Assembly: GCA_027923505.1 (NCBI GenBank)
Contig: BROI01000011.1
Coordinates: 62,001 to 126,000, forward strand
Length of the DNA stretch: 64,000 bases
Direction of reading: 5' to 3'
Source of the DNA: Mayamaea pseudoterrestris
Taxonomy: Eukaryota > Bacillariophyta > Bacillariophyceae > Sellaphorales > Sellaphoraceae
Part shown: positions 26,506 through 54,159 of the stretch, in pieces
Layout: every line of letters begins with the position of its first letter
Position numbering within the stretch: the first letter of the stretch is position 1
Made by a program: the position numbers and the translations under genes
The notes under the pieces: model-generated
Databases searched by the model: none
Seen by the model: the letters and a program-made list of their open reading frames with translations, nothing else
Told to the model about the DNA's origin: nothing

Positions 26506-29500
26506 TTACAAAAAGAGTCGTTCCTGATTGCCGCTCGCCGACGGATCCAAGTCGGCAAACTCACGAATCAACTCGGCAACGGCTTCCTCTCCCCTGGCTT
26601 CCCACTCGGCTCTGTTACGGACGGCATAATTCAAGCACTCGTCACTGTTCACGCCAAAGACCTTGCAATCCTTCAACTTTTTGGCCAAGGGAATGATGTA
26701 GGAATCAAAAAAGCCCAACTCGCCTTTGTACCAAAAGGACGCTGGATCGGCAGCCATTTTGCCGGAACGGAAGGCCAAGGTCAACTCCTTGAACAAGAGG
26801 CGGTTCCATTTGCGGTAAATGTGCCAGTGCTGCATGGTATGGGAGACGTCGCTTGCCTGGATAATGTGCTCCAACACAATGGTCGCCCGCAAAATGTTCT
26901 TGTCCACATTGGGAGTAATATCAGTCGAGAATGCTTTCTCCCAACGGTTCTTCCTCAAGGCATTGAGCTCCTTGTCAAAAATATCCGTCGCCATGACGGC
27001 ATTGACCATGACCTGGCGGAACCGGAGAAACTCCTCCTTGTTGGCAAAAAGGGTCTGGCGCAAGGCAGCAAACTGCTCGGACATTAACAAAGTCCAGGCA
27101 ATCTCCAGAGAGTTCTGCTCGGCGAGGCTTTGGTGCTTAAAGTGCTCAGCAAGGGCTGGCTCCTCCTTCTCCAGCTGCATATTGGAGATGCCACGGTGGT
27201 CGACATCATGAATAAGCCCACTGAATACCAAGGCAAAATGAGTGATCGGGTCCGAGTTTATGCCATGGGTATAGTCATGGATGAGCGCCATTGCTGCCTC
27301 CTTGCTCTTGCTGCAAGCCTTCTTCTCATCGTCATTAATCTCAAGCTCCGGTGTGGCAATGCGCTTCAAATGCTTGGAGATGCTCATGGTGACATGGCAG
27401 GCATGCTCAAAGTTGTGGAAAGGGTTGTCTCTGTACATGGAAGCAATGATTGAGACGTACTCACGGAGCTGTTCCAGAATAGTGGAATCAATCTCAAGGT
27501 CGCGCCACTCCGTTTCCTTGCCGTCGGCGTTGGCATCAAAGCGAGGCAACAAGATAGCTTCCACAACCTCATTAATACCGATGAGATCCTCGGACATTTG
27601 GAAGGAAGTGGACTTGGTCGTTGGATTGGCATCGCGCTTGGCTAGGATCTGCTTAAGGTATTCTCCAAGAAGCTCGGCCATCCAGTCGACTTTGCGGTCG
27701 CGCTTGAGGAGCTCTTCGGCATCGGCGCTCATTGGAACCGCGTCAATCATGGCGTCATTGTCGCTGCTATGCGTGCCACCACTGGAGGCTACACTGCCGG
27801 CCTTTTGCTTGGCTTGGGTACGCAACCAGTATGTTTGAAGGACGCCTTTACCCTTGGCGTTGACCGTGTCTTCGCGTGGGGAGAGCCAATGTCCCTTGCC
27901 AGCAATTGTAAGCATGTTGGCTGTCTCTTGTGACACTTGGATTCGTTCACGTGTGCCGGTCCTGCAATGAATCGAAATTGGCTGTGTGAGGAATGGACCG
28001 AGCGCAAGGGGACGAATGTGGGTAAAGCACATCAACAACTTACGATTCCATTCGCGAAGCAGTATTCACAGTGTCTCCAAAAAGCTGTGTGAAAAAGGAA
28101 AGAACCTTAGATTGCTACATCGTGTTGTCGTCGCGGCGCCCAAAAAACTTTTCAACTTACCTGAAAGCGACTTTTATCACCGCGCAGAACCCCTGCAGTT
28201 ACAGGACCAGAGTGCATTCCTACTCGCATGCAGAGCTCGGCGGTGTCGGGTCCAAGTGTCGTCTCGAGCCTTTGTGTTACTTCCTTGATCTTGATCATGC
28301 ACTCACTAGCAAAGCGTGCCATGATAACCGCATGGTTTGACTGCGGATCTGGCAATCCGGTGACAGCAACTGCAAAGGATTGAAGTTTAGCTACATCTCT
28401 GTACGAACGTACGCAACGACGAATTTTTTGGTGACGTACCATAGCAATCTCCAATAGTCTCGACCTTGAACACCTTGCGACTCTTAGCAATGTCATCGAA
28501 TGAGTTGTAAATGGCCTCCAACAACTGGAAGACTTGGGACGGGTCCCGCGTCGACGACCAGGCAGTGAAGCCTGATGATGAAATGGGGCCAAGGGAGTGG
28601 GTGAGCAATTGTCGACGCTGTTAAGACCGAACGACTTTGAATTAACAAGACTTACCGGAAATGTCAGCAAAGAGGACAGTGCATTCCGGAAACAAGTCAG
28701 CAATGCATGATTTGCCTTGCTCGTCGCCTCCCAAAAACTTATTTAACTTTTGGTTCTTGGATGACAGAATATCGCTGTCAGGGCTTTGCTGCATGAGCTT
28801 GTCAGCGACGCTTTTGGGAAAGAGAGACTGCACAATGGCTGTTGTTTGCTCGGCTCTTTGGAGAACAAGGTTTTGGCGTCGCTCAACGAGACGGTCATAA
28901 ACAACAAACATGATGAAAGTGAATGCAAAGACCATGGCAACGGCAAAGGTGATGAGGGCAGGCAAGCTGGTACGGTAATCATCCAACATGACCTGACTTG
29001 GGTAGGAAGTCATTTTAAAGGTGCATTCATCTTGGTTGAGCGGAATTCCGGTCGGGCTGCCGTCGTCCACGGATGATACATCTGCCATGGTTGCCATGCG
29101 GGCGTAGTGATCAAATTTGGTTTCATGCAAGTCTCCAAGACCCACCGGATCTGGCTCCGTTCCGGTAATTTTGAAAGTGTAAATGTCACCGTCGACCGCC
29201 GAACAAGTGCTCTCTAAAACCATGTTAATGCCGCGGATCTGCTGGGGCAAGACATTGACAAAGTAGCTTTCCCAGCGGATGAGGGCAGACATGAGTGCGA
29301 CTGGCCTCTTTGTGGCCTGGTCAAAGCTATCGAAGACAGGCAGATAGAAACGCGTCAACGGACTGGTGATGTAGGGAAAGGGACGACGTTTTGAAATGGA
29401 AAGAAGTGTGGTATATAGCTTCGTCTCTGCGGCAGTGTATACGACAAGCGTTAGCAGCGGCGCGGCTGAGTCTAATAGCGACAAGCAAAGCATTTTAGCA

Positions 29501-30590
29501 TACCTGGTGTAGCGTCGCTCTGTCCGTAGTCATCGCCGGCAAATTCAAAACCGCCAATGACGACTGTCCCAGTTGCGACCGTTGCGTTTGCGTATCTGGC
29601 CGCATCTGGATCGCTGAGCAAGTTTCTATTGACAAGGGTGCGGATAAAAACTGGCGACGTCTGCCAAGTTGGCAGGTACGGCCCTTTGGAGGGGTCAATG
29701 ATTGCGTCTCCTTCGTCGTTGAGAGTAAAGATGTGGTTTGCCAAGCCATCCAAGATCAGGTTTGGATCCGGTGACACTCGTTGTTTGACGTCCTTGAGAT
29801 CGAAGTTGACACCAAATTTATCATAATGTAGCAGTTTTTCGTAGTCTAATCCTTCCTCGTGCCATCCAGCATCCTCGCTTGTGAAGCTATAGGCCTCCCA
29901 CTCGTCGCGCTCGCCTGAGGAAACAAGCGGATTCGTGGTGACAAGGAGAGCGCCGGAGAGTGCGCGGGTGGTCAACGCTCTGTGTTGAAACCAAGACAGG
30001 CTCATTTCTGGCCATTCGTTCTCGTGGTCCACTGTAAAACATGTTTATAAGGATCGTGAGTATCATTTTGAACTAGTGCCGACTGATGTCCGCCCGCGGC
30101 ATGCTGCTGTACAGGCGGCGCATCATCCACACGATACTTACAAGCGTGAGCCGTCATTGCCACAGTCAATGAAGAGAGAGCCCCAAGGCGGCTTTGCGCG
30201 ATCTGCTGGAAGGTGGCTGTGTGTAGACGATTGTGAAAGTGTGTGAGAGTCGTGCTCATGACGATCGCTCAACTCGCTACCAACCAACCGATACCGACAC
30301 TCACCAAGCAATTTCTCAGAAGCGCCAAAATACATTGCAGTAAAACTCTGCTCTTCACTGCGCAAAGTGATGAAATATACGACGGTGGAAATTGCAATGC
30401 CTGCCAGCACCATGATGAGGAGAACGAAGCGCTTCAATCTTGTCACTTGCGCCGACTCGTTCTTAAACATGGCCTCCTTCTCCTCTAGTAGCTCTTGACC
30501 GCTCTTGGTAGAGGCATTTGAAGTGCTGAGGTTGCCGCTGTGACCGCTACTGACGCTCTGTTCATCGCTCTCGCTGGCTTGAGAGTTCAT
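26506..30590 (-). CDS. Receptor-type nucleotide cyclase fused to cyclic-nucleotide phosphodiesterase, copy B
   Basis: Eight exons: 30590-30305, 30216-30142, 30031-29504, 29426-28656, 28571-28440, 28369-28161, 28084-28044 and 27961-26506. All junctions keep frame; 1165 residues. Domain order matches copy A. The cyclase core has FADISGF, ETIGDCY and NTASRMES; the second purine-selecting site is again Gln (RFQLFGD). The phosphodiesterase has HNFEHACH, HDVDHRGISN and SDVSHTMQHW. The site where most class I enzymes have the invariant Gln of the purine pocket reads KGELGFFD, with Glu. The phosphodiesterase part is nearly identical to that of copy C, pointing to recent duplication or gene conversion. 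One intron (29503-29427) has no counterpart in A or C. Confidence 0.9.
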
Positions 30591-32554
30591 CGTTCTTATA
30601 AGAGGATTTCTGAATGCGACTGGCGAGGTAACCGGATCTGTTTAAACTTGCGCTTGATTGCGGATCTTTTTGCCTTGCACTTGCTGGAATGCTGTAAGCT
30701 GTAATGCTCGATTGATAATTATATTGCGTTTGTTGCTTGTTTCAGGCGAGATTGGCTCGGATGAAAAAGTGAGCGGAAGGTGCTCGATTGCGTCGGGAAG
30801 TTGATTGAATCGGTGATGCCATTTTCACGACCTTCAATATCAATGGAGTTGAACGAGAAGCCGTTCCAATATAGCCTTTCCCGACGAAGAAGGCGAAGTG
30901 TTCGAGTTTATAGCTCGTCACTCGACTCCGAGGGTCCTTTGAGACTATTCAAACTCTGCTTCATTTCGTCAATTAAATCCTCATGTGTTCTTTCCCGCAT
31001 GAGAGGTCCAAAGCCGGATGCATGCCGACGACGCTCGCTGCTCTTTGATGTTAATTGGTGTCACGTCAATTGCCTAACGTGCTCAGCACGGATAAAAAGA
31101 GCGTTCTCTCGGCTCAATGACATCTCCGGGATATACGCCCTTACATTCTTGAACGAGATTGTCTCTAGGGTGTGGTTGACTGGATCTTTCGCTACTCCCA
31201 CTCCTACTTGTACCGAAATTATTGCGTGTCCATGTTCAAAGGCAACCTAAGCCTGCGGATATCTGTGTTTAAAGTTTATGGTGGCTGTGCATAGATTTTT
31301 CATGGTTGCTGCACTAGTTTACATGATATCTATCATGCGGCATCATTGCCCGATCGCAACAATTGCATCGCTTGCATTCATTGTTAAGGGACAATTTTCC
31401 GTACCTTCTCCGGTACTGTAGGGCAACTGATTTTACAATACATAAAATAGCAAGTGCAGGCAACGCATGCGGAGCGCTGCCAGCACGCCACAACTATAAC
31501 CAAAGTATATGCATCGCCTTGGATGAATGGATTTGAAAAAGGAGGATCATATTATTGTGTTTGTTTGACACGACAGGCTCGCTCGCTATGGACTCGGCCG
31601 GCGTGTGTGTCAGTGCCAGTACGATTTGATGAAGCAGTGTTTGTGACGAGGCGCCGACGGCTCATCACTATGGCTGTTGCCATAACCACCATGGCGCTTT
31701 TCCTCTGTACTAATAAATAGCGCGGCGTTAAACTCCGAATATGATTGGATCGAGCAAATACTCGGATGCCTATTTTCGATATAGCGAGCTCACTACGTGA
31801 TCAGGGCGCATGCGGGCGCAGCGATACGACTTGCTTGTTGCTTATGTTCGATTCTACTTGCTTTGACAAAGAGAGCAATAGTATGCTGCAGGAAATCATA
31901 ACAGCACCATTGGAGCACTCTCAGAGCTTCCCCTTTCGCATCGCTGACTGACTCTTCGCGCCGGCATGATGATTGACGCTCCAGCTCCGTGTTGCTTGAT
32001 ATGAATCGGCATCGTCTACGCATCGCAAAGGCTTAGGGCCAACTGCGAATCAACGAAGAAGCTACGATGCTTTGAAATCATACTTACAGTCATGGCGTCG
32101 AATAAAAGACGTGCGACAGCGCAGTCGCTCGTCGCCAGCCTCGCTCCGAAGCAACAGAACATTTTTGACATATTCCAACCATGGGTGCATCGATGCCCGA
32201 TGCCGCTGAGTTCGTGATACGCGTACACGGCTATTGGACTTGCGCACGCCAGTCTATACATTCGAACTGCCAAAAAATACCCTCACGACGCGACGATTTG
32301 ATGGCATGATTCATGATGAATTTGGGAGACGCGAGGCGGTGATTGCTGATCCAGCCTGTGCTACTCGACAATTTACAAGGGAAGGAAAGTTTGCAGCGAG
32401 AGCTGGGTGCCTGCCATGCCATCGTCGTCCGTAGGAAGGACTTTAACAGCGGTGGTTCCAACTCCTACATGAGCAATCTTTTGTTTAAACAATAAAGAAT
32501 ATCAATTCGGGGTTTTATAATATTCATATGATTTCGACACGACGGTTGGCCGAC
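30591..32554. other. Spacer between cyclase-PDE copies B and C
   Basis: About 2 kb with no supported gene. It holds the promoter of copy B and the 3' end of copy C. A 156-codon plus-strand frame (30780-31250) has no domain, and its composition does not resemble the neighbours. Confidence 0.5.
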
Positions 32555-35500
32555 TTAAAGAAAGAGTCTTGCCTCATTGCCGGGATCCTGGAGGTCTGCA
32601 AACTCTTTCACTAGTTCAGCAACCGCCTCCTCTCCCCTGGCTTCCCACTCAGCTCTATTACGAACGGCATAGTTCAAGCACTCATCACTGTTGACGCCAA
32701 AGACCTTGCAGTCCTTTAACTTCTTGGCCAAAGGAATGATGTAGGAATCAAAAAAGCCCAATTCGCCCTTGTACCAAAACGACGCCGGGTCAGCTGCCAT
32801 TTTACCGGAGCGGTAGGCCAAGGTCAGCTCTTTAAAGAGGAGACGGTTCCATTTGCGGTAAATGTGCCAGTGCTGCATGGTATGAGACACGTCCGAGGCT
32901 TGAATGATATGCTCCAAGACGATGGTTGCCCGCAAAATGTTCTTGTCCACATTTGGGGAAACCTCGGCGGAGAAAGCCTTTTCCCAACGGTTCTTCCTCA
33001 AGGCATTGAGCTCCTTGTCAAAAATATCCGTCGCCATGACGGCATTTACCATAACTTGACGGAAACGAAGGAACTCTTCCTTGCTGGCAAAAAGGGTTTG
33101 CCTTAAGCCAGCGAACTGCTCGGACATCAACAGAGTCCAGGCAATTTCCAAGGAGTTCTGCTCGGCTAGACTCTGGTGCTTGAAGTGCTCGGCAAGAGCA
33201 GGCTCCTCCTTCTCCAGCTGCATGTTGGAGATGCCCCGGTGGTCAACATCATGTATCAACCCGCTGAACACCAATGCAAAGTGGGTGATTGGATCCGAGT
33301 TAATACCATGGGTATAGTCATGGATGAGCGCCATGGCTGCTCCCTTGGACTTGCTGCAGGCCTTCTTCTCGTCATCATTAATCTCAAGTTCCGGTGTGGC
33401 AATGCGCTTCAAGTGCTTGGAGATGCTCATGGTGACGTGACAAGCGTGCTCAAAGTTGTGAAAGGGATTCTCGCGGTACATGGAAGCAATGATGGAGACG
33501 TATTCTCGCAGCTGACCAAAGACGACGGGGTCAATCTCGATATCATGCCAGTCGCCCTCAGTTGACTCCTTGTTGGCGTCAAAGCGAGGCAGTAAAATGG
33601 CTTCCACCACTTCGTTGATTCCAATTAAATCCTCCGGCATCTCGATACTGCCAGCCGGACGTGCCTTGGATGATAACGGATCGACTCGTTTGCCAAGTAT
33701 CTGCTTCAAGTACTCGCCAAGGAGCTCCGCCATCCAATCAACCTTGCGGTCGCGCTTGAGAATGTCTTCTGCCTCAGCACTTGCAGGGACGTCCAAGTCC
33801 ATTGCCATGTCATTGTTGCTGCTGTGGGTTCCACCACTAGAGGCAACGCTCCCCGCCTTTTGTTTGGATTGAGTGCGAAGCCAATACGTCTGAAGCACTC
33901 CCTTGCCCTTGGCATTAACAGTGTCCTCGCGCGGCGACAGCCAATGGCCTTTGCCGGCCAAAGTCAAAATATTTGCGGTCTCTTGCGACACTTGAATCTT
34001 CTCTCTTGTACCAGTCCTGTTGGAGAAAATGATTGAATGCACTGTCAGTTCTAGTCGCGCGGCAGTGAAAGCAGGTGCAAACAAGTAGCGTCTACTTACG
34101 ATTCCATGCGGGAAGCAGTATTGACAGTATCCCCAAACAACTGTTTTGAGAAAGAGCGAGTGATGTGAGTATGTCTAGTGTGTTGTCAATGTGAGCTCGA
34201 GACGAAAAAATAACACACTCACCTGGAAGCGACTTTTATCGCCTCTAAGGACACCAGCTGTCACAGGTCCTGAATGCAAACCGACTCGCATGCAAAGCTC
34301 CGCAGTGTCTGGACCGAGGGTGGTCTCAAGGCGTTGAGTCACCTCCTTCATCTTGATCATGCACTCACTGGCAAACCGGGCCATGATAACGGCATGATTC
34401 GCTTGCGGGTCTGGAAGGCCGGTCACAGCAACTACAAAGGCAGCGGAAGATGTGAGCTTCATGGAGATATTTGTATTACATCAACTCCTAGAAACGTACC
34501 GTAGCAATCGCCAATCGTTTCAACCTTGAACACCTTGCGGCTTTTAGCAATGTCATCAAAAGCGTTGTAAATGGACTCGAGTAGCTGAAACACTTGAGAT
34601 GGGTCGCGCGTCGATGACCAAGCGGTGAATCCTGCGGTAGTAAGAAGAAGATGGTATCGGTGAGCGACTGGTCAGTGGAGTAGAATACAAGATGGCAACC
34701 AACAACATACCAGAAATATCAGCAAAAAGTACGGTGCACTCGGGGAACAAGTCGGCAATTGTCTTGGTGGCTTGGTCGTCGCCACTGAGAAACTTGTTGA
34801 GGCGTTGGTTTTTGGACGCGAGCGGATCCATATCTCTCGTCTCCTGAATCAACTTGTCGGCAACGCTCTTGGGGAACAGAGATTGAACAATGGCCGTTGT
34901 TTGTTCTGCCCTTTGAAGCACCAGATTTTGTCGACGCTCGACCAGTCGATCGTAGACGATGAACATGAGAAAGGTAAAAGCGAACACCATGGCGACCGCA
35001 AAGGTGATGAGCGCCGGCAAGCTTGTGCGATAGTCGTCAAGCATCACTTGGGTCGGGTACGAGGTCATTTGGAAGGTGCATTCGCCTTGGTTTAACACGA
35101 TTCCATTTGGACTACCATCATCAACCGTCTCAACATCGGCCATGGTTGCCATGCGGGCCAAATGATTAAACTTGGGGTCGTGGTGGTCGCCCATGCCGAC
35201 TGGATCGGGTTCGTGTCCAGTAATAACAAAGGTGTAAACGTCGCCATCAGTTGCTGAGCAAGTGCTCTCCAACACCATGTGGATGCCTCGTATCTGCTCC
35301 GGCAATATATTGACAAAGTAGCTCTCCCAACGAAAAAGTGCCGTCATTAACGCCGTTGGCTTTTTGGTTGCTTCGTCAAAGGTGTCGAAGATAGGAACGT
35401 AAACCCTTTGGACGCGGAGGAGAAAGAGCGACGTTAGAAAGGGATCGTCGTGAGACCATGCACTGACAAGAAAATGATATTCTTACCGAGTCAGCGGGCT

Positions 35501-42450: not shown

Positions 42451-42788
42451 GGTTGTAGAGATGCAAATGTATGTTAAACGATCAAGTTTGTAGATTGTGA
42501 GAGGAGAAAATCGATCGGAAGATTTTGCTCGAGAGAGATCGGATCTTTTTCCTCGATTTCCGAACGCAATGGAATTGGTGAACCTTTGACAAAGGCGATG
42601 TGTCATTTTGCGAAAGAAACAAAATGGGACTGACGTGTTGTGACGTGGTTTTTAAAGTGGTGCTACGACATCCTTTTTTGTGTGAGAGAAACGCTGCGAC
42701 ATTCTGTCACGCTTGGTGACCATGACCATGGCGGCGCTCGACGCTGGCAAAACATGAATCCAAGCAGTATCGAGTACGGTAACGAAAT
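42451..42788. promoter_or_regulatory. Divergent region with LHC promoter and direct 20-bp repeat
   Basis: 338 bp between the LHC start (-) and the first propeller protein (+). Two copies of a 20-bp motif starting GATCGGA and ending TCGA lie at 42513-42532 and 42537-42556 with 4 mismatches, about 65-105 bp upstream of the LHC start codon. They could be binding sites for a regulator or part of the 5' UTR. Confidence 0.45.
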
Positions 42789-44573
42789 ATGCTAATGCCC
42801 CTGTTTCCATCGACGACAGCAGCAGCATCTCGTTCCATTCAAGGCCCATTATCTCGACGAGCCGGACAGCAGCAATCACATGGCAGCAGCAAGAAGAATA
42901 ATGAAGCTTGCTCGCCATGGAACAATCGACTCGTCAAGTGCAGCATCGGTGCCAGTCTATTGATTTGCATGGCAGCAAATGTATGGCTGTTTGCAAATGT
43001 TGGACGTAATAGCAGCAAGGAGACAACGAGAATAAAGGCCAAGCAGCAAAGTGAATTGACATCAGGTGCTTCCTCGTCGTCGTGCCGACTCCGAGAGTAT
43101 CCATCACATCGCTATTATCACTGGAGTCGCGAACTTTCGGACAAGTCGAAGCATCCTTCCTTCTTGACAGATTCCGAATACATTTACGGAGAATGGCCGA
43201 AAATACTTGACATGATTTCTCCCCCGCAAAAGCTTTGCGTCGATCAGTCCGACTGGCTGCCAAAAGATGCATCATCATCGAGAGTAAGCACCGTCAATAC
43301 ACTTCCATTCGCCGATGGCACCAATCCAAGCATTGTATCCATGCAGCGACTGCTACAATACGCTCCAAGTGTACACGAAACGATTCATAAACTACATCCA
43401 ACTGCCAAATACATTGCAACCGCCTGCATGACCAATAGTCAATGCACTTGGCCGGAAGCCACGCCGCCGCAGAAACCAATCGTCGTTTTGACCGTTTTCA
43501 TGATTCTTGACGCTTCCTTTCAGTCGCTCCACCAAACGACTATTACATTAGAACGAGATTCCGCCTGGGGCAGGCAGCCGCAACCATTGCAGCAAGTGGA
43601 TCAGCACGCGACGCCAGCGCTGGACGACGCGCGCCTGTTCGTCCACGACCATCAACTATGGATCAGCTACCGGGAAGGTCACGTTTTTGGTTACGAGTCG
43701 CAAGTATTGAATCCAGTGCATTTCAGTGTGGAAGAAACGTTGAGCGTTTACATCAAAACATCCGAAACGACGTCGTTTTGCTGCGGCCGCAACATGGCAC
43801 TCATGCAGGATGCAAATGACGACGACGCCAAGCAATCTTCATCGTCAAGTAGTAGTATCCTGCGAGCACTCACGTGGGTGGATCCAGTCACGGTGGAAGC
43901 GGTAAATACCACGCCGCTGCTGCAGCAACAAAGCAAGCCGAACAAGGGTCGTCGACTACGTGATTTAAAGTTGCACGAGAATGAGACGGCGCTTCGTGAT
44001 GCGTTCATCAATGGCAGCACTACTATGGATGCATATCTGCCACTGCAACTACAAGACCAACCATTCCATCGACGTCTCGCATCCAGTATCAAGAAGAAAA
44101 AGTCTCACATTCACGGCACGAATGCCTTTATGGTTCATTTACCGGACCGCAACGAGTACTTTGGCATTGGGCACTTTCATCGGCCGCCCGATCGCGCGCA
44201 GAATCCGTACGCACGGTTCGGTCACCACTATACGCACTGCTTTTACACCATTACGGACCAACCGCCGTATGTCTTGACAAACTTGAGTCCCGAATTTTTG
44301 CTTCCAGCAGCGGCAGCTAGTGGTGGCAGTCGCAAGGAGCTAAATGCGGCGGAAATGATTCAGTTCCTGAGCGGCCTCGAGATTGTCGACAGCAAGAGCT
44401 CGAGCGAAAAGGACCGCGTCGTTGTGATTGCCTATGGCATCAATGACTGCGAGGCTGCCGTGACAACCTTGCCGTGGCAAACGGTGGTGTCGCTCATGCG
44501 GCCGGTTCGTCAAAATGCTGCTGCTGCTGCTGCTTTACAGGTAGTGGATTACATGCAGCCACTGCGACCATAA
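42789..44573 (+). CDS. Type II membrane protein, probable beta-propeller carbohydrate enzyme, copy 1
   Basis: 594 residues, single exon. A Ser/Gln-rich cytosolic tail is followed by one signal anchor (CSIGASLLICMAANVWLFANV, about residues 54-74), placing the bulk in the Golgi lumen or outside. The luminal part begins with REYPSHRYYHWSREL and contains DGTNPSIVSMQRL, DDARLFVHDHQLWISYREG, FCCGRNMALM and WVDPVTVEAV. It ends with HGTNAFMVHLPDRNEYFGIG, GHHYTHCFYTITDQPPYVL and IAYGINDCEAAVTTLPW. The repeated strand pattern and the YGINDCEA ending recall five-bladed propellers of the GH43/GH130 type or glycosyltransferase-associated proteins. The exact enzyme activity is unknown. A paralogue follows 220 bp downstream on the same strand. 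Confidence 0.77.
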   Translation: MLMPLFPSTTAAASRSIQGPLSRRAGQQQSHGSSKKNNEACSPWNNRLVKCSIGASLLICMAANVWLFANVGRNSSKETTRIKAKQQSELTSGASSSSCRLREYPSHRYYHWSRELSDKSKHPSFLTDSEYIYGEWPKILDMISPPQKLCVDQSDWLPKDASSSRVSTVNTLPFADGTNPSIVSMQRLLQYAPSVHETIHKLHPTAKYIATACMTNSQCTWPEATPPQKPIVVLTVFMILDASFQSLHQTTITLERDSAWGRQPQPLQQVDQHATPALDDARLFVHDHQLWISYREGHVFGYESQVLNPVHFSVEETLSVYIKTSETTSFCCGRNMALMQDANDDDAKQSSSSSSSILRALTWVDPVTVEAVNTTPLLQQQSKPNKGRRLRDLKLHENETALRDAFINGSTTMDAYLPLQLQDQPFHRRLASSIKKKKSHIHGTNAFMVHLPDRNEYFGIGHFHRPPDRAQNPYARFGHHYTHCFYTITDQPPYVLTNLSPEFLLPAAAASGGSRKELNAAEMIQFLSGLEIVDSKSSSEKDRVVVIAYGINDCEAAVTTLPWQTVVSLMRPVRQNAAAAAALQVVDYMQPLRP

Positions 44574-44793
44574 ACTTCTACCAGGTGTCTTTTTGCTTTT
44601 CATCATTTGTTTAAGTATGTAGAGTACTTGCTAACATGGTAGAAGATGCTACTCGTATTGCTCTTTCTACGGTACAAGTACAAGCTACGTACGACTAAAA
44701 GTACGCCGGCCTTCGTCCAGTAACGATGCGACGGCATTAGCGAGCATGCGACCGATATCATTTTTCCATGTTCCAGTGTCATGATGAATCTCG

Positions 44794-46695
44794 ATGCATT
44801 TTGAGGCACTGCATCAAGCAAGTATTAATATGCACGCAATCATTCAGTTGCTCCTGCGCATCATGCCATCATCCGTTGCTACCGGTAGTGCTCGTCCCGT
44901 GAGTGGGCCGCTGAGTATCAATACTCGTAGTGCCAGTCGTCGTCGTCGCTACCTTGGAACGAGTCAGCAGCCCTTGCGATGGACGCGACAAAACTATATT
45001 CTCATGGGGACTCTCAGTTTGATGGGGCTATTTGTATTTGGAAGTTTTGCAGTGGATATTGTGGGTTTTTATATCGAAAGTTATCGGATTGGAAACTCTC
45101 ATGTGGAGCGTGACAATCAACGTACACAATACTTGAAAAAGGTACAAGAAGAAAGGGAGCAAAGCGAAGCGGCGAATGCACGTTTCCAAGCCTACGATCC
45201 TTGCTCGTTTCGAAACTATTCCTTGCATCGTTACTACGATTGGGTGCCAAACTACACGATTCTTAATCCAGTCAGCAAATGGTGGCTACCAAGACATGCA
45301 GAGTTTCTAATGGTGACTGACTACTTGTTTCGAAAGTGGCCGAAAATGTTACGAGATACGAGTCCTCCGCGCAAGCTATGTATTGATCAGTCCGCATGGC
45401 GTCATGAACGTAAATATACACGTACAGCAGCAGCTGGTTCTCGAGTGGAGTTTTTCACTCCAGTTTCGGATGGAACCAATCCGAGTATCATTTCGCGGCG
45501 CCGGCTGGAGCAATACGCTTTCAATCATACAGCGTTTCTGTGGGCCAAGTTTCCAAGTGCAGCCTACCTTGCGACGGTGACGCTACCGGTGAATGGACAA
45601 TGTATTTGGCCCGCCGCGCCGATGAACAATGAGACAATGGCTGTCAACCAACGGCGCGATTTGTTTCGAACAATATTGTTGGTGTTGAATGATTCGTTTC
45701 AGCGCTTGGAGGAATGGACCATTGCTTTAGTACCAGACACAACATGGGGACGCCTACCGACGGGCCACCGTATTCAGGAAACGGAAAATAATTGCATCGA
45801 AGCTTGTCAGTACACTGGCGTTTCTTATTGGCATGGGACCACGCCGTTGATGGAACATGTCCAACTGTTCATTCATAATGAGCGATTGTGGATCACGTAC
45901 CGTAACTCGTCCATGTTCAATCCCGACGCGCAAGCGATCAATCCCTTGCACTGGCGTGGAGAAGTCGGAGTGGAAATCAAGGCGTCGGAGACGGCTACAT
46001 TTTGTTGTGGGCGAAACATGGCGTTGCTGCAGCACTTTAAACGTGCATCATCAGAGCCGCCGCTGTCGTCGTCGCCGCCACTTTGGGCCTTGACTTCGGT
46101 TGATCCAGTCACTGTGGAACAAGTGGATACGACGCCACTTTCAAATCGGACCAGAAGCAAGTGGCAACGACGACGACGATTGCAACAGAAAGCCTCTATT
46201 GAGTTTGCACGTTCCAATAAATCACCCATGCGCGGCACCACAGGCTTCATGGTTCACTTGCCGGACCGACGCGAATACTTGGGCATTGGCCACATGCATA
46301 GACCATTTTCCGAAAACGAAGGACCGAATCAATACGCATGCGGCGGACATCATTTCACGCATGCCTTTTTTACCATTTCGGATGAGCCGCCGTATAAATT
46401 GACGAGTCTGAGTGTCGAGTTTATGCTGCCAGCCGCAGTGGACAACAACAAAACGTTTAACGCGGAAGTGATCCAATATTGGAGCGGTCTGGAAGTGGTT
46501 GAAGCTGATGAGAAGGAACGTATGGTTGTAATTGCATATGGCTTGAACGCATGCGAGTCGGCTATTACGACGTTGCCGTGGTCAAAGGTGGAATCTGTGC
46601 TGCATCCAGTCAACGACAAAGAGGATGGAAGTGCGGACGCCAAGCAAATAGTTGATTTCATGGCGCAATTTGCATTTCCACACGGTACTGGTTGA
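44794..46695 (+). CDS. Type II membrane protein, probable beta-propeller carbohydrate enzyme, copy 2
   Basis: 633 residues from the first ATG; a later ATG (MPSSVATGS, near 44863) could be the real start and would give a tail like that of copy 1. The signal anchor is YILMGTLSLMGLFVFGSFAV. Matching blocks to copy 1, in order: NYSLHRYYDW, SDGTNPSIISRRRL, VQLFIHNERLWITYRNS, FCCGRNMALL, SVDPVTVEQVDTTPL, GTTGFMVHLPDRREYLGIGH, GGHHFTHAFFTISDEPPYKL, IQYWSGLEVVE and IAYGLNACESAITTLPW. Here the conserved NDCEA of copy 1 is NACES, so an Asp is lost. The copies are clearly homologous but well diverged, so the tandem duplication is old. It ends only 65 bp from the convergent Pls-type gene. Confidence 0.77.
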   Translation: MHFEALHQASINMHAIIQLLLRIMPSSVATGSARPVSGPLSINTRSASRRRRYLGTSQQPLRWTRQNYILMGTLSLMGLFVFGSFAVDIVGFYIESYRIGNSHVERDNQRTQYLKKVQEEREQSEAANARFQAYDPCSFRNYSLHRYYDWVPNYTILNPVSKWWLPRHAEFLMVTDYLFRKWPKMLRDTSPPRKLCIDQSAWRHERKYTRTAAAGSRVEFFTPVSDGTNPSIISRRRLEQYAFNHTAFLWAKFPSAAYLATVTLPVNGQCIWPAAPMNNETMAVNQRRDLFRTILLVLNDSFQRLEEWTIALVPDTTWGRLPTGHRIQETENNCIEACQYTGVSYWHGTTPLMEHVQLFIHNERLWITYRNSSMFNPDAQAINPLHWRGEVGVEIKASETATFCCGRNMALLQHFKRASSEPPLSSSPPLWALTSVDPVTVEQVDTTPLSNRTRSKWQRRRRLQQKASIEFARSNKSPMRGTTGFMVHLPDRREYLGIGHMHRPFSENEGPNQYACGGHHFTHAFFTISDEPPYKLTSLSVEFMLPAAVDNNKTFNAEVIQYWSGLEVVEADEKERMVVIAYGLNACESAITTLPWSKVESVLHPVNDKEDGSADAKQIVDFMAQFAFPHGTG

Positions 46696-46759: not shown

Positions 46760-49700
46760 TTACACAATGTCAACGTATGAACCCGTTTCTGTAGCTCGGC
46801 TCTCGCGCGATGCAATGCTGCTCGTATCGTAAGAATACACACGACTTGCCGGAGCGCCTTGCCAAATCGTATCCGCTTCTATAACCTCTCCTGTCATGGC
46901 CAGACTCTTTTCCAGGAGCATGGCTCCCGATTCGACAGTCACACCTTGCTGTACCCGAGAGCCAGTCCGCAACGTGACATTGTTCTCCAGCTTGATAGGC
47001 ACCAGCTCAAAGTTACCCCGCGTGTTCAAGTGACAGACAACCGACGAGCAGTCTACGACGCAGCGGTCGCCCATAACGACCATATCAATTTCGGGTGGAA
47101 ATGGATCCGCTCCTGCTGGATAGAGACAACAATCATCTCCGAGTTTGCCTCCCATCATGCGAAAAAGTGTGGCAAGATACGGTGTGCCGGCAATAAAGTC
47201 GAGAAAGTTGACCTTGCCACTTTGGCGGACCTTTGATACAATCTGGTAGCACTCCCAATTTTGGGCGTATGGGTCTTCATGGTAATTGTATCGACCTTCC
47301 TTTCGCGTGCCCATGAATGCCCACTTGGCGCCAATCTCCACCAGAAGCCACATTGCGACGCGGATGCAATGCGTGAAGCAAAAGGCAATGAGCATGACAG
47401 TATATACCTCTGAAAAGGTTACGTAGTCGCGCTGGTAAACGCGACCTTGTATAGCTCCGTACCAATAAAAGGCACTCAAGTGTAGCGCTCCGAGCATTGA
47501 AAAGCAATCTAGCGCAGCGATGATGCTCTTGGTAACAAGAGTGAACGAGATAATGAGTGGCAGTGGCCAAACAAAGTAGTTGGCTTCTCTCTGATAGAAG
47601 GCCTTTCCAAAGGGACGTAAGGTCGAGTCGTCGCCAGTCATTTGCAGCATCTCAACTTTGACATCAGCAGCAAGGACAGGTCCGTCATAGTCTTCAGCGC
47701 CCCTCTCAAGCATTACAGGTTCGCCGCTCTTGGCTCCAAACGAAACACTCGCTTCGGGTAGATACCTCCCTGCCGGACATAGTGTATTAGATCCAAGCAC
47801 GGCGTTTTTGCCGATTATTGAACCAGGGAGGACAACAGTATTATCCGACACGTTAGCTCCCGCACAAAAGACGATTTTCTCCGCTGAGTCAGTCGTTGTT
47901 GCGAGTATTGTCGACCGGGAACCAAATACAACATCGTCACCAATCTCCAAAAGGTCGAATTCGCCAGAGAATATTGGCTGATGGCCTGGCCAAAAGACTC
48001 GCTTTCCGACTTTGGCGCCAAGCGCGCGGTAAAGACAGCTGACAAGCTCATAATGCCGGCCGACAAGCTCCGTGTAATCCTGCATTCGTTCTCTTGTGAA
48101 CAGATCTTGAGCAAGTTTGTGGCGAACAAGTTGCCATTGGGAACATGTATCACGTGGACCAGGTTGGAATTTGCCAATGACTAGCCGTTTGACCAAGACT
48201 GCGGCTAACATGTACATGAACGGTGCAGCAATGGCACGAGCCACTCGAATTCCAATGTAAAATGGAATGCGACGAGGATCGCAGAGCCACGCCATCAAGT
48301 CGTTAATGCTGTCAAAAGCCTTCCCTTGACGCCACGGCATAGATACCATCCAATACAGAACGTAGAGAGCCGGAAGATGGCTAATTGTATCAACCATGAA
48401 CATGATTGGCCTACAGATGAAGGTCTGCGATATCCAAGTTGGCTCTGGTAGCGCTTGTCGATTGTACTTTGAATGTTTGACGTCATGGCCCGGCTCGATC
48501 AGGGATGCATTAACTTCGTACGAACTCGTCGCTGGACCCAAGTGATGGAAATCTGGAACGGCAGTGTATGGACAAACGACCGACTTTACTCCAACGCTTG
48601 CAAAGTCGCCAACTGCGACTGGCCCAAGCATCATGCAACCATTGTCAACTCCAAAACCTCGAATGGTTGAGTACTCAACCGCCGCTCCTTCTCCAATCGT
48701 CACTAGATCGTACTCGGCAATATCCGACTCCAAACTTATTCGTGCATTCTGTCCGATTGTGGCGCCGCACAACTTGTAGTAAAAGCAAAGCAAGCTTTCC
48801 GTCGAGCCAAAAATGCCGCGTCCAATCAACTTGCGCATCACATCTACAAACCACCATCGTAGGTAAGATTGGCCCCAGATCGGGTAACGGCCAGCTTGAT
48901 ACTTTCCAATTATGGTCCATTTTAATGCCACAAAGACCAGAGGCGTAATTGTGATCCAAAGAAAATGATATGTGATCAAGGTCGCAACAAAAAGAATGAG
49001 ACTGTGAACGCTCGGCACCTTGTACAAAACAAATACCAGCGACCGAAAGAATAGGAAGAATCGAGTCAGCTGCCACACTGGATAGACAACTAATAGAGGA
49101 ATCAGTTGAAACAATGAAGCGAATAGACCAGAAGAATTTTCGAGGCGTGTATGATCAAATGGCTTGCCATGCGGTCGAAACTTTTCGGAGAATATCGTCG
49201 AGACTGCCATAGAAGCAGTGTAGCCGTCGGATGCGTCAGCACGATCTGATCCGTCCACTGACTTTCCTTCTTTTCGCTCGCGAACAATCTTGGCAATCGC
49301 GATGCAGTTTGTATGGTGGAAGACTTCAGAGCCTCCGAACGACACGTTGTGAATCTTACGGACCTTGCTTGCAAGCTGTGATGCCAGCATGGACGACCCT
49401 CCGACGTTGAAAAAATTGGTTGTCCTGTACAGCACAGGGAAACAGTGAGATCACTAGAGCCATCTTGTAGCTTCCTCAACAATTTTACGGCAACAACTTA
49501 CGGTGCGGGCAAACAATCAAGGTCTAATAATTCCTGCATCAGCTCTTGCAACGAGCTCACAAGCGGATCAGTCGGTCCAACACCAAACAATTTCTCTTCT
49601 TGTTCAATCGACCCAACTGCGTCGCAAGATTGCGGCGGTGGTAGTTCCTGATCCGGTTGGCGCAGGGTACAAACATGACTTGGAACGGCGAACGCATCCA

Positions 49701-52005
49701 ATCTCTCCTTAGCCACCCTGACTACGAGGAGTCGTTCAATATTGTACACGTGACACACAATCGCGCCAATCTTGTTTGGATGCGGCACCACGATTAGATC
49801 TTTTTGTGGCCCATCAACGAGCGCTTCTCGCAAGATATCCTGGACTCGAGAACATTGAACGCTTATTCGCTGACATGGAATTGCGACAGAAACTGGTGTA
49901 CCCTGCGGAGGACATTCGGCTTGAAACGTTCGCTCAATCGGGTACATTGTGTCATTAAGCTCGGGTAGTCGTAGACGCTGCGCTAGCTTGACGCGAAGAA
50001 CCTTGTTCGTGTGCGATTTTGGCAGTGTCGACATGTACACGACACACTGCGGCCACTTTGGCGCTGTCAGCCTTCCTTCACCGAGGAAAGCATGCAATGT
50101 TGTCAGATCAATCATGGGCATGTTCGGGACAGGAATCAAAACTATTCCAACTACTTCTTGAAGTATCGAATGCGGCGTCGAAAAGGCAATACAGTTCTGC
50201 ACGAGTGGGTGTTCATTGACGGCTTCTTCTACCTCCAATGGCGAAATAATTTCGCCGCCTCGGTTAATGACTTCCTTCGATCGCCCCGTGATGTAAAGAT
50301 ATCCGTCAGAGTCTTGGTATCCAATATCGCCAGTGTTAAACCAGCCGCCAGGCAGAAATGTTTGTTGTTGCTGCTGTTCCCCTGCCATGAGACCATATCC
50401 GCGAAAGCAGGGTGCACCTCGGACACAAATCGCCCCTTCCTTGCCCGGTGACATGGCTTTCATACCATCCACGTCATAGATGGCAACTTCTGGACCCACC
50501 GCGACGCCACTAGTTCCAGGCTTTTCTAGCTGATACGTCGCTGGCGGACTCGTAATCGGCATACACTCGGTCATTCCGTAACTCGGCAAAACGTTCGCCT
50601 GAAAGGCTTGTCGCAACTCGCGCGCCAAGCTTGGCAGTAACCCTCCTGCGGCGTTTGCAATCATGCGCAACTTGGGGTGAGTTCCCGACGGAATGCGTCC
50701 ACATCCCTTGCTGTCGATCAAGCCTTCCGCCTGACCAGTCTGCAGAATAATTTGATGCATCGTTGGCGCCGCATAGTACCAGGTAAATCGTTCTTCCTTT
50801 AGCAAGCTCCAAAAGACGGCAGGATCAAATGATGGGCAACAAATAACGCAGCCTCCACTGAGTATAGGCGAAAAGACTTGTCGAATAATGCCTCCGACAT
50901 GAAATAACGGCATGAGGTTCAAGTTGATATCATCCGACGCGAGTTGCCAGCTAATGGCGATGCAGGATGTTGCAACCAAAACATCAGCTAGTAAGTGTGG
51001 AACAAGCTTTTTGCTTCCCGTAGTTCCGCTCGTGAACAAGACAAGAATTTCGTCATTGTGGCCATTGGGTTGCATGCTGCTGCTGGCATGTTCGTCATTG
51101 TTCTCATTGTAATTGTACGCACGCTGCTGATACTGCACTGCCGGATCATTTCCGAAGCTTGCCTTGATGGCAGACTCTTCCTCAGCGTTTCGTCCAGCGG
51201 ATCGATCTGCTTCATTCGTCAAAGTAGCGTGTGGGGTGGACGCATTTTGTGCGGGTCCATTGTTGGAGTCACCCATCATGCCAAGGATACGTCGCGGACT
51301 GGATGGAACGACGCTAGGGTATTTCGCAATCGACTGCTGCTGCTGCGGTTGCTGCAACACGAACAAGCCGGCGTGTTTCGCGTCCTCCTGCAAACCGCAG
51401 TAGGCAATTCCCAGCTTCTCCGCCACTTGCTGAATTCCATTGCTCTTGCCGCTACTACATCCTTGTTGACCAATCACCAAGTCCACCGACGCCAAAACCA
51501 AGTCGCTCTCCAGCTCCGCCACGGCTCCAAACGCGTTCAACGGCACGCACGAGCACCACGTCGTCAAGCACAAAATCGCCAGTGCCAGCGTCGGCCCATT
51601 CTCCAAGCACAAGGCAACCCGATGCCCACGTCGAATACCCAGTTTCTGTAGCGCCAAACCAGTCTGCTCCATGCATGTTCGTATTTGCTCAATGTCGAGG
51701 GGTAATCGACCATCAATGCTTGCCAGCGCCGCTGGAAGAGGTCCGCTGCTAGAGTTGCTACTTGTCGATGCCTTGGGCAAGGCTTCCAATAGATTGCGAA
51801 CCTGCGGCAGTACGGCTTGCGCGACATGAGTTCCGATAATGCTTCCATTTGGTTGCAGCAAATGCTTGGCGAGTCCGACCAGCGGTGGGAGTGGCGTGTT
51901 GGTATGCTTGCTTGCTTGACTCAATCGAGCGTGGTAGGAACTCGCAGCTGCCGCGTCCAAGACGGAGCTTGATCGAGAGAGCGAGGCCATGATGGAGGAT
52001 GACAT
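46760..52005 (-). CDS. Adenylation-carrier protein with Pls-type membrane and hexapeptide-repeat region
   Basis: Two exons, 52005-49502 and 49424-46760 (77-bp intron), 1722 residues. Residues about 85-690 form an acyl/aminoacyl-adenylating domain: LFTSGTTGSKK (A3), YGMTE (A5), FNTGDIGY (A7), GRSKEVINRGGE (A8) and the late lysine in SHTNKVLR (A10). MPLFHVGG and the AAPTMHQIIL block make it most like acyl/oxalyl-CoA ligases. A carrier domain follows with TNFFNVGGSSMLASQL, where Ser846 should carry phosphopantetheine. The rest (about 900-1722) matches the C-terminal part of Pls-type peptide synthetases: several membrane spans, GKYQAGRYPIWGQSYLRWWF and left-handed hexapeptide repeats. There is no condensation or thioesterase domain. 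It may activate an acid and pass it to an amine or polymer at a membrane. Confidence 0.88.
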
Positions 52006-52602
52006 TGATAATGATACAGTCAAGTGTTTTGATGTGATGTTTCGTCCGCAATCTTTCGGATTAATCTCTCGCAACGTTCTTGGTTTTGCAATCCGTGCTA
52101 CAGTGGCTGAATCGTGTCGCAAGAACCAACACTTTCGAGAGCGACCGACCGGTAACACTCTCTCTGTTCGTCTCGGAGTCTTATCAACGTGTTTTATGTA
52201 TGTGCTCGACTCTCACTTCCACGAGAGAATGGCAGCAAGAGAGGTGCGCAAGTAGGAATTGGATCACAAGATTGGATCAAACCGGAGTCGTCTGGATCGC
52301 CTGCGAGATAACTGAATAACTGAATAACTGATAAATAACAGGCAGCTTGCTCTTGAACGTCCAGTAGAGCCAAGCTGCTAGTCTTGGTCTTGCTATGGAG
52401 CGGAATCTGTGTGATGGAGCGAGGGGCGGAGCAGGATGGATGCCGACGTCGCCAAGAGAATCAAGCGGCATTGAAAATTACGTCTACTTAACAAGATACT
52501 TTCTGAACGGAGCATTTGAAATTCAAGCCTTCGCCAACGTGTACCGTTACGACAGCCGACTAACGCGACCTCACATTCTTTGAAAGGCTTCATTCGTTCA
52601 CC
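52006..52602. promoter_or_regulatory. Divergent region of Pls-type and FAD oxidoreductase genes
   Basis: 597 bp between divergent start codons, a possible shared promoter. It includes an 8-bp tandem repeat of about three and a half units (AACTGAAT type) at 52308-52338. The Pls frame stays open upstream of its ATG but has no further ATG there. Confidence 0.45.
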
Positions 52603-54159
52603 ATGGCAATCCTCTCGCAACGACAGCAATTTTCATTCACATTAGTATGGATATGCTGCATGTACTTTATGAATATTCGACATGCTTGTGCCCTTTCATC
52701 CAGAGCAGCGCATCCTAAACAGCCTCCCCGCAGTCACCAAACATCACCACCATTGTCACGCTCATCATCGCAACGACAAAAGGTCGCCATTATTGGGGGC
52801 GGCATTGCCGGATTATCCTGCGCACAGCAACTAGTCAATCATTCAAAATATCAAGTGACTGTCTTTGACACCGGAAGACTTCGGCCGGGAGGACGCTGCG
52901 CCAGTCGATTACCAAATGATGTAGCATCAAAGAAGGATGCAGCGTCGCCGACATTTCCCATACTTTCGCAGTACTGTATTGACCACGCGGCGCAAATAAA
53001 TGACGTTGAAACAGAGAAGAAGAGCAATGAGCATTTATATGGAGCATTTCAAAAACAAGTGTGCCAATGGAAGGAGCGAGGAATTTTAAAGGAGTTTCCA
53101 AAAAACTCGCTGGTCCAAATTCAGGTCGACAAGCATGGAGTTGCAACCTCAATCGAGCCCGTAGCTTCATCATCATCGTCGTCGTCGTACCTGCACGCTC
53201 CGCAAGGCATGGGGTCAATTCCAATTTCCATTCTCAACGCTATAGAAAGTGTTTCTGGAAACGATGATGGCAAGTTTGTCTATCGACAAGACGTTTGGGT
53301 CAGTCCATCCAACGGTTTGCGCTACTTGAATCAAACGCGCGACTGGCAAATTTCATCCAATGGCAAGTCATTGGGTCGCTTCGATCAAGTCATTATTGCA
53401 CACAACGGCAAGTGCGCCGACCGGTTAACAAGTGCCACGCCCGCTAAGCTCATCAACAACCTGCTCAAGGTCAAGTTCGCTCCAACGACAACAAAAAAGT
53501 CACAACGCATGACGCTCAATAGCATTTACAGTTTAAGCTTTGCACTACCGCGCGGATCAAATCTTTCGAAGCGATTGGCGAGCGAAAGTGGAAGTCCGTT
53601 CATGTGCGGCATGATTCAAAAGCATCCTAGCTTGTCCTTTCTCACCTGCCAAACTAACAAGCTTCAGCAACCGGCTGCAGATTGCGAGCATGAAATCTGG
53701 ACGATTTTAAGTACAGCAAACTTTGCATCGCAGCACAAGGCGCCGCAAGAGTTTTTGCCCCAAGATGTTATCGCAAACGTATCCAAACTGTTGATCAACT
53801 CGCTCGAAGAGTGTTTGGGCATGTCGCAACAATCTATACATGCAAGCATACTCGAGCATCGCCTCCAACTTTGGGGTGCAGCTCTTCCACTCAATGTGTA
53901 TCAAAGCGGTGAAGACAAGAGGGATGGCTTTCTTTGGGATGGCAAGTTTCAAATTGGTGTCTGTGGTGACTGGCTAATGGAGCCCAGCATTCGCGGAGCA
54001 TGGACGAGTGGACTGCAACTGGGACGATTGCTTACAAACGATGACCGACGCGACAATGCCCAAAGTAAGCAGTTCAAAGGTGCGTTTTATAGGAGCGATG
54101 CCGCGGCGGAAGCGGGGATTGGAGCATTTGATTTGCCGATTGCGGTGGCGGAAAGGTAG
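52603..54159 (+). CDS. FAD-dependent oxidoreductase, renalase/amine-oxidase-like
   Basis: 518 residues, single exon. A hydrophobic N-terminus (FTLVWICCMYFMNIRHACA, residues 12-30) is a likely signal peptide for entry to the secretory system or plastid. The dinucleotide-binding motif VAIIGGGIAGLSCAQQL starts at about residue 61, with the acidic end of strand 2 in VFDTGRLRPGGRCASR. The C-terminal flavin motif is GVCGDWLMEPSIRGAWTSG, as in renalase-like and flavin amine oxidase proteins, which oxidise NAD(P)H isomers or amines. Substrate unknown. It is divergent from the Pls-type gene, suggesting possible co-regulation. An Asn/Ser-rich insert and a poly-Ser stretch (near 53165-53190) are unusual for the family. 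Confidence 0.85.
   Translation: MAILSQRQQFSFTLVWICCMYFMNIRHACALSSRAAHPKQPPRSHQTSPPLSRSSSQRQKVAIIGGGIAGLSCAQQLVNHSKYQVTVFDTGRLRPGGRCASRLPNDVASKKDAASPTFPILSQYCIDHAAQINDVETEKKSNEHLYGAFQKQVCQWKERGILKEFPKNSLVQIQVDKHGVATSIEPVASSSSSSSYLHAPQGMGSIPISILNAIESVSGNDDGKFVYRQDVWVSPSNGLRYLNQTRDWQISSNGKSLGRFDQVIIAHNGKCADRLTSATPAKLINNLLKVKFAPTTTKKSQRMTLNSIYSLSFALPRGSNLSKRLASESGSPFMCGMIQKHPSLSFLTCQTNKLQQPAADCEHEIWTILSTANFASQHKAPQEFLPQDVIANVSKLLINSLEECLGMSQQSIHASILEHRLQLWGAALPLNVYQSGEDKRDGFLWDGKFQIGVCGDWLMEPSIRGAWTSGLQLGRLLTNDDRRDNAQSKQFKGAFYRSDAAAEAGIGAFDLPIAVAER

What the first reader, a model, noticed from the sequence alone, without database searches (positions are those of the whole stretch)
46760..52005. 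Adenylation-carrier enzyme ending in a Pls-type membrane/hexapeptide region in an alga
The protein joins an acyl-CoA-ligase-like adenylation domain, a carrier with GGSS, and the multi-span hexapeptide region known from Pls-type peptide synthetases such as epsilon-poly-lysine synthetase. It has no condensation, reductase or thioesterase domain. The product could be a new membrane-made amide or poly-amino acid.
Basis: partly seen in the sequence, partly recalled or inferred. Interest (0 to 1): 0.75.

Follow-up and report, generated by a model that had tools for sequence, protein, structure and literature searches.

The report
Hybrid acid-activating membrane enzyme in alga
An algal gene joins a front end that looks built to activate plain organic acids to the membrane-bound back end of enzymes known for making poly-amino acids, but with many of that back end's conserved residues changed, so it probably makes a different and still unknown product.

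Summary
One minus-strand gene (46760-52005; 77-bp intron 49425-49501) encodes a 1722-residue adenylation-carrier-membrane/hexapeptide protein. The carrier is split by the intron and passes Pfam's cut-off only when the exons are joined, so this is one transcript. The C-terminal 770 residues are collinear with the terminal domain of Pls/PosA poly-amino-acid synthetases (TIGR02353, E 2e-61; model: six long helices in three pairs, three strand-rich regions). The poly-amino-acid reading is not supported. The adenylation domain is of acyl-CoA-ligase type (nearest solved relative oxalyl-CoA synthetase, E 2e-57). Where 111 of 111 assessable prokaryotic Pls-type rows (124 examined) have Asp, the alpha-amine anchor, it has His. 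The terminal domain scores 208 of 423 bits and has lost seven polar residues that are invariant in 62 prokaryotic rows, keeping His798. Best reading: a membrane acyltransferase that loads an acid without alpha-amine on its own carrier and passes it once to an acceptor at the membrane. Substrate, acceptor and product are unknown. No eukaryotic sequence collection was at hand, so how widespread the hybrid is remains open.

The parts
49502..52005 (-). Exon 1: N-terminus, adenylation domain, linker, first part of the carrier
   Evidence: splice; Pfam on joined protein
50395..51678 (-). AMP-binding domain (residues 110-537), acyl-CoA-ligase type, with extra low-complexity sequence before the A3 motif
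   Evidence: Pfam PF00501 E 1.9e-47; best PDB oxalyl-CoA synthetase E 1.7e-57; A4 FHVGG, A5 SYGMTE, A8 GRSKEVINRGGE
50002..50235 (-). AMP-binding C-terminal subdomain (residues 591-668)
   Evidence: PF13193 23.0 bits, just under its cut-off 24.5
49504..49968 (-). Linker of about 140 residues before the carrier plus the carrier's first residues, without any Pfam match; AlphaFold confidence below 50
49307..49551 (-). Carrier (residues 819-874), interrupted by the intron; GGSS with the presumed phosphopantetheine Ser846 at 49391-49393
   Evidence: PF00550 29.9 bits joined, 18.9 for exon 2 alone
49425..49501 (-). 77-bp GT-AG intron
46760..49424 (-). Exon 2: rest of the carrier and the membrane/hexapeptide terminal domain, with stop
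46835..49138 (-). Pls/PosA-type terminal domain: six long helices in three pairs (exon-2 residues 96-133/139-171, 334-365/383-416, 620-658/667-704)
   Evidence: TIGR02353 208 bits; alignments A1 and A3; AlphaFold pLDDT 69, pTM 0.78
48524..48766 (-). C1 beta-helix region
47729..48016 (-). C2 beta-helix region; invariant Asp502 and Asn545 are Ser here; it also carries the Pfam Hexapep match
46844..47152 (-). C3 beta-helix region; invariant His798 (47030-47032) kept; Gln796, Glu801, Lys806, Tyr826, Lys844 replaced

Best explanation
It is a membrane-anchored, self-loading acyltransferase. Shown by sequence: an acyl-CoA-ligase-type adenylation domain with most of its core motifs, an intact carrier serine, and a Pls-type terminal domain, predicted as three beta-helix regions on six helices. 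Inferred: the adenylation domain turns a carboxylic acid without an alpha-amino group into its acyl-AMP and passes it to the carrier's phosphopantetheine arm. The arm then delivers the acyl thioester to the beta-helix domain at the membrane, where the retained His region helps an amine or hydroxyl of a membrane-associated acceptor attack it once, giving an amide or ester. Without a second nucleophile on the donor no chain would grow, so this works like one turn of a Pls enzyme and not like a polymerase.
For: Joined carrier and collinear domains. Adenylation domain nearest to acyl-CoA ligases: the 25 shown of 103 NCBIfam matches are CoA ligases, synthases or synthetases, and the three best PDB sequences are oxalate-CoA ligases. 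His in place of Asp (105 of 105 assessable of 118 rows have Asp; 6 of 6). PosA's side-chain-amine Glu is missing too (102 of 105 rows have Glu). PosA D217A has no detectable activity (PMC10522769, passages). Foldseek's six matches at E<=0.001 are hexapeptide acetyltransferases, a carbonic anhydrase, two complex-I entries (one chain is named gamma carbonic anhydrase) and a serine acetyltransferase, each covering only part of the model (TM to target 0.33-0.55). Fold scaffold and His798 kept.
Against: No substrate, acceptor or activity was tested. Five conserved polar residues within eight positions of His798 (796, 801, 802, 803, 806) are gone, so this site may not be catalytic; non-polar conserved residues (five Trp, several Gly and Pro) are lost as well, which also fits plain divergence or decay. 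The A3 loop lacks the usual Pro and Gly around its Lys. A beta- or omega-amino acid would also lack the alpha-amine anchor and could still polymerise. The adenylation-domain model is poor (pLDDT 54), so the pocket rests on sequence alignment only.
Confidence: 0.45

Rival explanations
1. A poly-amino-acid (homopolymer) synthetase like Pls, PosA or PDAP synthetase: it activates a diamino acid and joins it iteratively.
For: Same order of domains and same terminal-domain architecture. Homologues are reported in fungi, Metazoa, 'Alveota' and Amoebozoa, some with unknown substrates (PMC10522769, passages).
Against: Asp is His, Glu+4 is missing, A5/A8 motifs differ, TIGR02353 at half the cut-off, seven invariant polar residues of the terminal domain changed.
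Confidence: 0.08
2. An omega- or beta-amino-acid enzyme (for instance beta-alanine): the adenylation domain needs no alpha-amine Asp, and the terminal domain makes an amide (once, as the insect enzyme Ebony does, recalled) or an oligomer.
For: The Asp-to-His change fits any acid without an alpha-amine. The Pls terminal domain is an amide-forming domain (PMC9205021, passages).
Against: No positive sequence sign of an amine-binding residue was found; the pocket could not be modelled well.
Confidence: 0.17
3. An oxalyl or other short-dicarboxylate transferase, because the adenylation domain is closest to oxalyl-CoA synthetase.
For: Three best PDB sequences are oxalate-CoA ligases (E 1.7e-57 to 4.7e-47); the His at position 214 of the second one is kept.
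Against: Of the three oxalate contacts that I recall for the Arabidopsis enzyme (His214, Ser289, His319; recalled, no paper read), the alignment puts Ala and Pro at the last two.
Confidence: 0.12
4. The terminal domain is no longer catalytic; the adenylation-carrier part loads an acid on the carrier for a separate enzyme and the rest only anchors it in a membrane.
For: 31 of 71 columns conserved in at least 90% of 62 prokaryotic terminal domains are changed, among them 7 of the 11 conserved polar columns from 780 to 846; longest end branch in the tree (2.72).
Against: About 770 residues stay open and collinear, with Asp780, Asp786, His798, Glu846, Gly-Thr 746-747 and the KW and YPxWG motifs kept, which suggests selection on more than an anchor. 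No carrier-partner family was seen among the neighbours scanned.
Confidence: 0.13
5. Two neighbouring genes wrongly joined.
For: No transcript was available.
Against: The carrier spans the splice and passes its cut-off only when joined (29.9 against 18.9 bits); exon 1 has no in-frame stop before a canonical donor.
Confidence: 0.03

Closest known systems
Pls/PosA/PDAP cationic homo-poly-amino-acid synthetases (TIGR02353 terminal domain)
   Same: Adenylation-carrier-terminal domain order, no condensation or thioesterase domain; six helices in three pairs and three beta-helix regions (predicted); much of the glycine scaffold and the C3 His kept.
   Different: Adenylation domain of another class (His for Asp), TIGR02353 score below cut-off, seven invariant polar residues lost, some 300-400 residues longer than most of the bacterial open frames seen, in an alga.
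Fungal epsilon-poly-lysine synthetase Epls (Epichloe; PMC7179176, passages)
   Same: A eukaryotic adenylation-carrier-C1/C2/C3 protein.
   Different: Epls keeps the lysine pocket of bacterial Pls (51% identity to S. albulus Pls, as the paper says); this protein does not. Not aligned here: its sequence was not held.
Oxalyl-CoA synthetase (AAE3/Pcs60; the name Pcs60 recalled)
   Same: Best sequence match of the adenylation domain, with the core motifs aligned.
   Different: Fused to a carrier and membrane domain here; two of three recalled oxalate contacts changed.
Hexapeptide (left-handed beta-helix) acyltransferases
   Same: Nearest solved fold for single soluble regions.
   Different: Here three regions in one chain on six helices, with a carrier in line.

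Membership tests
Pls/PosA homo-poly-amino-acid synthetases | Adenylation-carrier-terminal domain, no condensation or thioesterase domain | tested here: met
Pls/PosA homo-poly-amino-acid synthetases | Six transmembrane helices in three pairs with three tandem beta-helix regions | tested here: met
   six long helices in three pairs and three strand-rich regions in the model (pLDDT 69); a plain hydropathy scan reaches its threshold in five of the six helices, not in 334-365; a prediction only
Pls/PosA homo-poly-amino-acid synthetases | TIGR02353 above its curated cut-off | tested here: not met
   208.1 of 423.1 bits; 14 full-length bacterial rows also fall below it, at 347-380 bits
Pls/PosA homo-poly-amino-acid synthetases | Asp (PosA 217) and Glu (221) in the adenylation pocket | tested here: not met
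   His in the window, Asp in 105 of 105 assessable of 118 examined rows; Glu in 102 of 105, Arg aligned to it in the window
Pls/PosA homo-poly-amino-acid synthetases | Invariant polar residues of C2 and C3 | tested here: not met
   502, 545, 796, 801, 806, 826, 844 (62 of 62 rows each) changed; His798 (62 of 62) kept
Pls/PosA homo-poly-amino-acid synthetases | Makes a homopolymer | not testable with these tools
   needs an assay
Acyl-CoA-ligase branch of adenylate-forming enzymes | A3, A5 (YxMTE), A8 (GRxKExI..GGE), A10 Lys | tested here: met
   A5, A8 and the A10 Lys align with the oxalate-CoA ligases; A3 keeps TSGTT and Lys but not the Pro and Gly beside the Lys
Oxalyl-CoA synthetase | Oxalate contacts His214, Ser289, His319 (recalled) | tested here: not met
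   His, Ala, Pro in the alignment
Phosphopantetheine carrier | PF00550 over its cut-off with the GGxS serine | tested here: met
   29.9 bits, cut-off 20.8; GGSS

The most novel reading that the evidence does not exclude
The protein stands for a eukaryotic class of membrane enzymes in which the Pls-type terminal domain has been re-used, with a rebuilt active site, to transfer a plain organic acid from an in-line carrier to a membrane acceptor. It would show that this domain is a general carrier-dependent acyltransferase and not only a poly-amino-acid polymerase.
Probability: 0.3. Interest if true: 0.72.

Novelty: new variant of a known kind. Interest (0 to 1): 0.5.

Why it matters
The characterised enzymes with this terminal domain that I saw described in the passages read (epsilon-poly-lysine, delta-poly-ornithine and poly-diaminopropionate synthetases) make poly-amino acids. 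A natural hybrid with an acid-activating front end and many changed conserved residues would help to separate which residues of the poorly understood terminal domain serve transfer and which serve polymerisation, and it points to an unknown algal metabolite.

Tried and rejected
Poly-amino-acid product: rejected as main reading. Oxalate as substrate: weakened by the pocket alignment. Two separate genes: rejected. Resemblance of the C-terminal half only to unrelated acyltransferases: rejected, since TIGR02353 scores 208 bits over three stretches while the best single hexapeptide family scores 36.

Searches that led nowhere: the window's own peptides in genome contigs and viral contigs, alignment A2 in viral contigs, a DNA pattern for the window's C3 motif in viral contigs (0 matches; I had a vague memory of similar fungal motifs, not confirmed by any search), defence models, viral fold library (no match at E<=0.001), linker against Pfam. 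In 'phages' only two records matched, both at 23% identity and labelled Acinetobacter phage. The adenylation-domain model was too poor to use and was not fold-searched. The terminal-domain tree puts the window on the longest branch, in no well-supported clade of up to half the rows, so its origin is undecided.

Papers: passages of PMC7179176, PMC9205021, PMC4668381, PMC10522769, PMC7073580, PMC10366177, PMC2823734 and PMC8949500 were seen, and section 12 of PMC7073580 whole; the others only in search listings. Among the rows listed by searches I saw no title or abstract start describing this hybrid; some searches listed only part of their hits (25 of 45, 15 of 1,048, 20 of 171), the library is open-access only, and supplements were not readable.
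Full report
Gene model. The finding's coordinates are those of a complete minus-strand gene: ATG at 52005 (a second in-frame ATG at 51990), a 77-bp intron at 49425-49501 with GTAAGT donor and CTGTACAG acceptor, TAA ending at 46760, 1722 residues. The two exons belong together. The carrier domain is cut by the intron: joined it scores 29.9 bits against Pfam PP-binding (cut-off 20.8), exon 2 alone 18.9, and the last 155 residues of exon 1 match nothing. No whole genome is held for the window.

Adenylation domain. It is of acyl-CoA-ligase type. Of 103 NCBIfam matches at E<=1 the 25 shown are all CoA ligases, synthases or synthetases. The best solved relatives are three oxalyl-CoA synthetases (oxalate-CoA ligases), E 1.7e-57 to 4.7e-47. 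Of the 118, 105 had a recognisable A3 motif in the frame examined and 13 did not (truncated, frame-shifted or wrong frame). All 105 have Asp at the position where the window has His. Six more rows, from searches of two other phyla (5 of 296 and 1 of 300 genomes had a match at E<=1e-30), also have Asp. Six of these 111 rows repeat others: four pairs are identical over their last 300 residues, and L120 and L124 are the L025 and L041 genes again. PosA's second key residue, Glu, is present in 102 of 105; in the window an Arg aligns there, beside a two-residue insert. The A5 and A8 motifs (SYGMTE, GRSKEVINRGGE) differ from the prokaryotic ones (YGPTE in all 105; the commonest A8 forms are GRIDxQVKxRGF-like) and align with those of the oxalate-CoA ligases. 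In PosA the Asp binds the alpha-amine and its Ala mutant has no detectable activity; [quoted passage not shown]

Terminal domain. Exon 2 matches TIGR02353 with E 2.2e-61 in three stretches, but at 208 bits against a cut-off of 423. It aligns end to end with bacterial Pls-type terminal domains at 19-26% identity. A structure prediction from 37 sequences (pLDDT 69, pTM 0.78) gives six long helices in three pairs and three strand-rich regions, the arrangement reported for a model of PosA: six membrane helices under three packed left-handed beta-helices like those of sugar-nucleotide acyltransferases (PMC10522769). A hydropathy scan reaches its threshold in five of the six helices. Foldseek against the PDB finds only partial matches: six at E<=0.001, hexapeptide acetyltransferases, carbonic-anhydrase-type proteins and a serine acetyltransferase, with TM to target of 0.33-0.55. 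By sequence no Pls-type terminal domain is among the 26 matches or the 60 listed of 123.

Changed conserved residues. I aligned the window with 62 prokaryotic terminal domains: 43 of L001-L008 and L009-L088 (the set made non-redundant at 78% identity, with L002 put in and L006 taken out by hand) and 19 of L098-L118 (L109 and L117 left out; L089-L097 not used). 71 columns are conserved in at least 90%; the window keeps 40, of which 18 are glycines. In a narrower set of 36 it keeps 51 of 96 columns conserved in at least 92%. Kept polar residues include Asp780, Asp786, His798 and Glu846. Lost are Asp502 and Asn545 in C2 and Gln796, Glu801, Lys806, Tyr826 and Lys844 in C3, each present in 62 of 62 rows; Asp802 (60 of 62) and Arg803 (59 of 62) go too. 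Non-polar conserved residues are lost as well, five Trp and several Gly and Pro among them, so the pattern is not confined to likely active-site positions. From residue 772 to 830 the alignment has only one single-residue gap and a two-residue insert in the window. [quoted passage not shown]

Mechanism. The anatomy supports acid activation, carrier loading and delivery to a membrane-embedded beta-helix domain. Pls makes a bond between a carrier-bound monomer and a freely diffusing acceptor (PMC9205021, passages); this protein could do the same once, with another donor. Substrate, acceptor and even catalysis at the terminal domain are inferences. Oxalate is unlikely if the contacts that I recall are right: of His214, Ser289 and His319 only the first is kept.

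Place among known things. It works like a Pls-type enzyme in layout but fails three of the family's defining tests (cut-off, pocket, terminal-domain residues), so I do not file it as a member. The cut-off alone would not decide: 14 full-length bacterial rows with Asp where readable also fall below it (347-380 bits). PosA's authors found relatives in fungi, Metazoa, 'Alveota' and Amoebozoa, some with unknown substrates; every pocket code quoted in the passages read begins with D, and the word 'alga' does not occur in the text; their supplement was not readable. A survey of algal genomes lists 'Other(A)' proteins in three diatoms, three extra ones in Phaeodactylum, whose further architecture is not given in the section read (PMC7073580, section 12); these might be of this kind. 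In the tree the window has the longest end branch (2.72) and no secure place.

Limits. No eukaryotic sequence collection could be searched, so 'new' means not seen in the collections and papers named here. All functional statements rest on sequence and prediction.

Noticed in passing
window 52564-54159 +: FAD/NAD(P)-binding oxidoreductase (NAD_binding_8 E 2.3e-9) divergently transcribed from the enzyme gene, likely start codons about 600 bp apart (52603 and 52005); could be co-regulated.
   Followed up: partly
window 42783-44573 and 44788-46695 +: Two tandem proteins of about 600 aa, alike by eye, without any Pfam match at E<=0.01, ending close to the enzyme gene's 3' end.
   Followed up: partly
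window 20836-35482 -: Tandem array of three similar cyclic-nucleotide phosphodiesterase-like ORFs (20836-22506, 26506-28065, 32555-34174; only the second was scanned: PDEase_I E 4.5e-23, weak Guanylate_cyc), each with a further similar ORF upstream.
   Followed up: partly
window 49504-49968 -: About 140-residue linker between adenylation domain and carrier without family match; by eye it faintly resembles a second adenylation C-terminal subdomain.
   Followed up: partly
L105-L118: 14 full-length but sub-cut-off (347-380 bits) TIGR02353 terminal domains in one bacterial class; the 12 put in the tree form a clade of their own. Possibly an uncharacterised Pls subgroup; those readable keep Asp in the pocket.
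   Followed up: partly
L026, L041: Pls-type terminal domains on contigs labelled as archaeal genome bins (Euryarchaeota, Bathyarchaeota).
   Followed up: no
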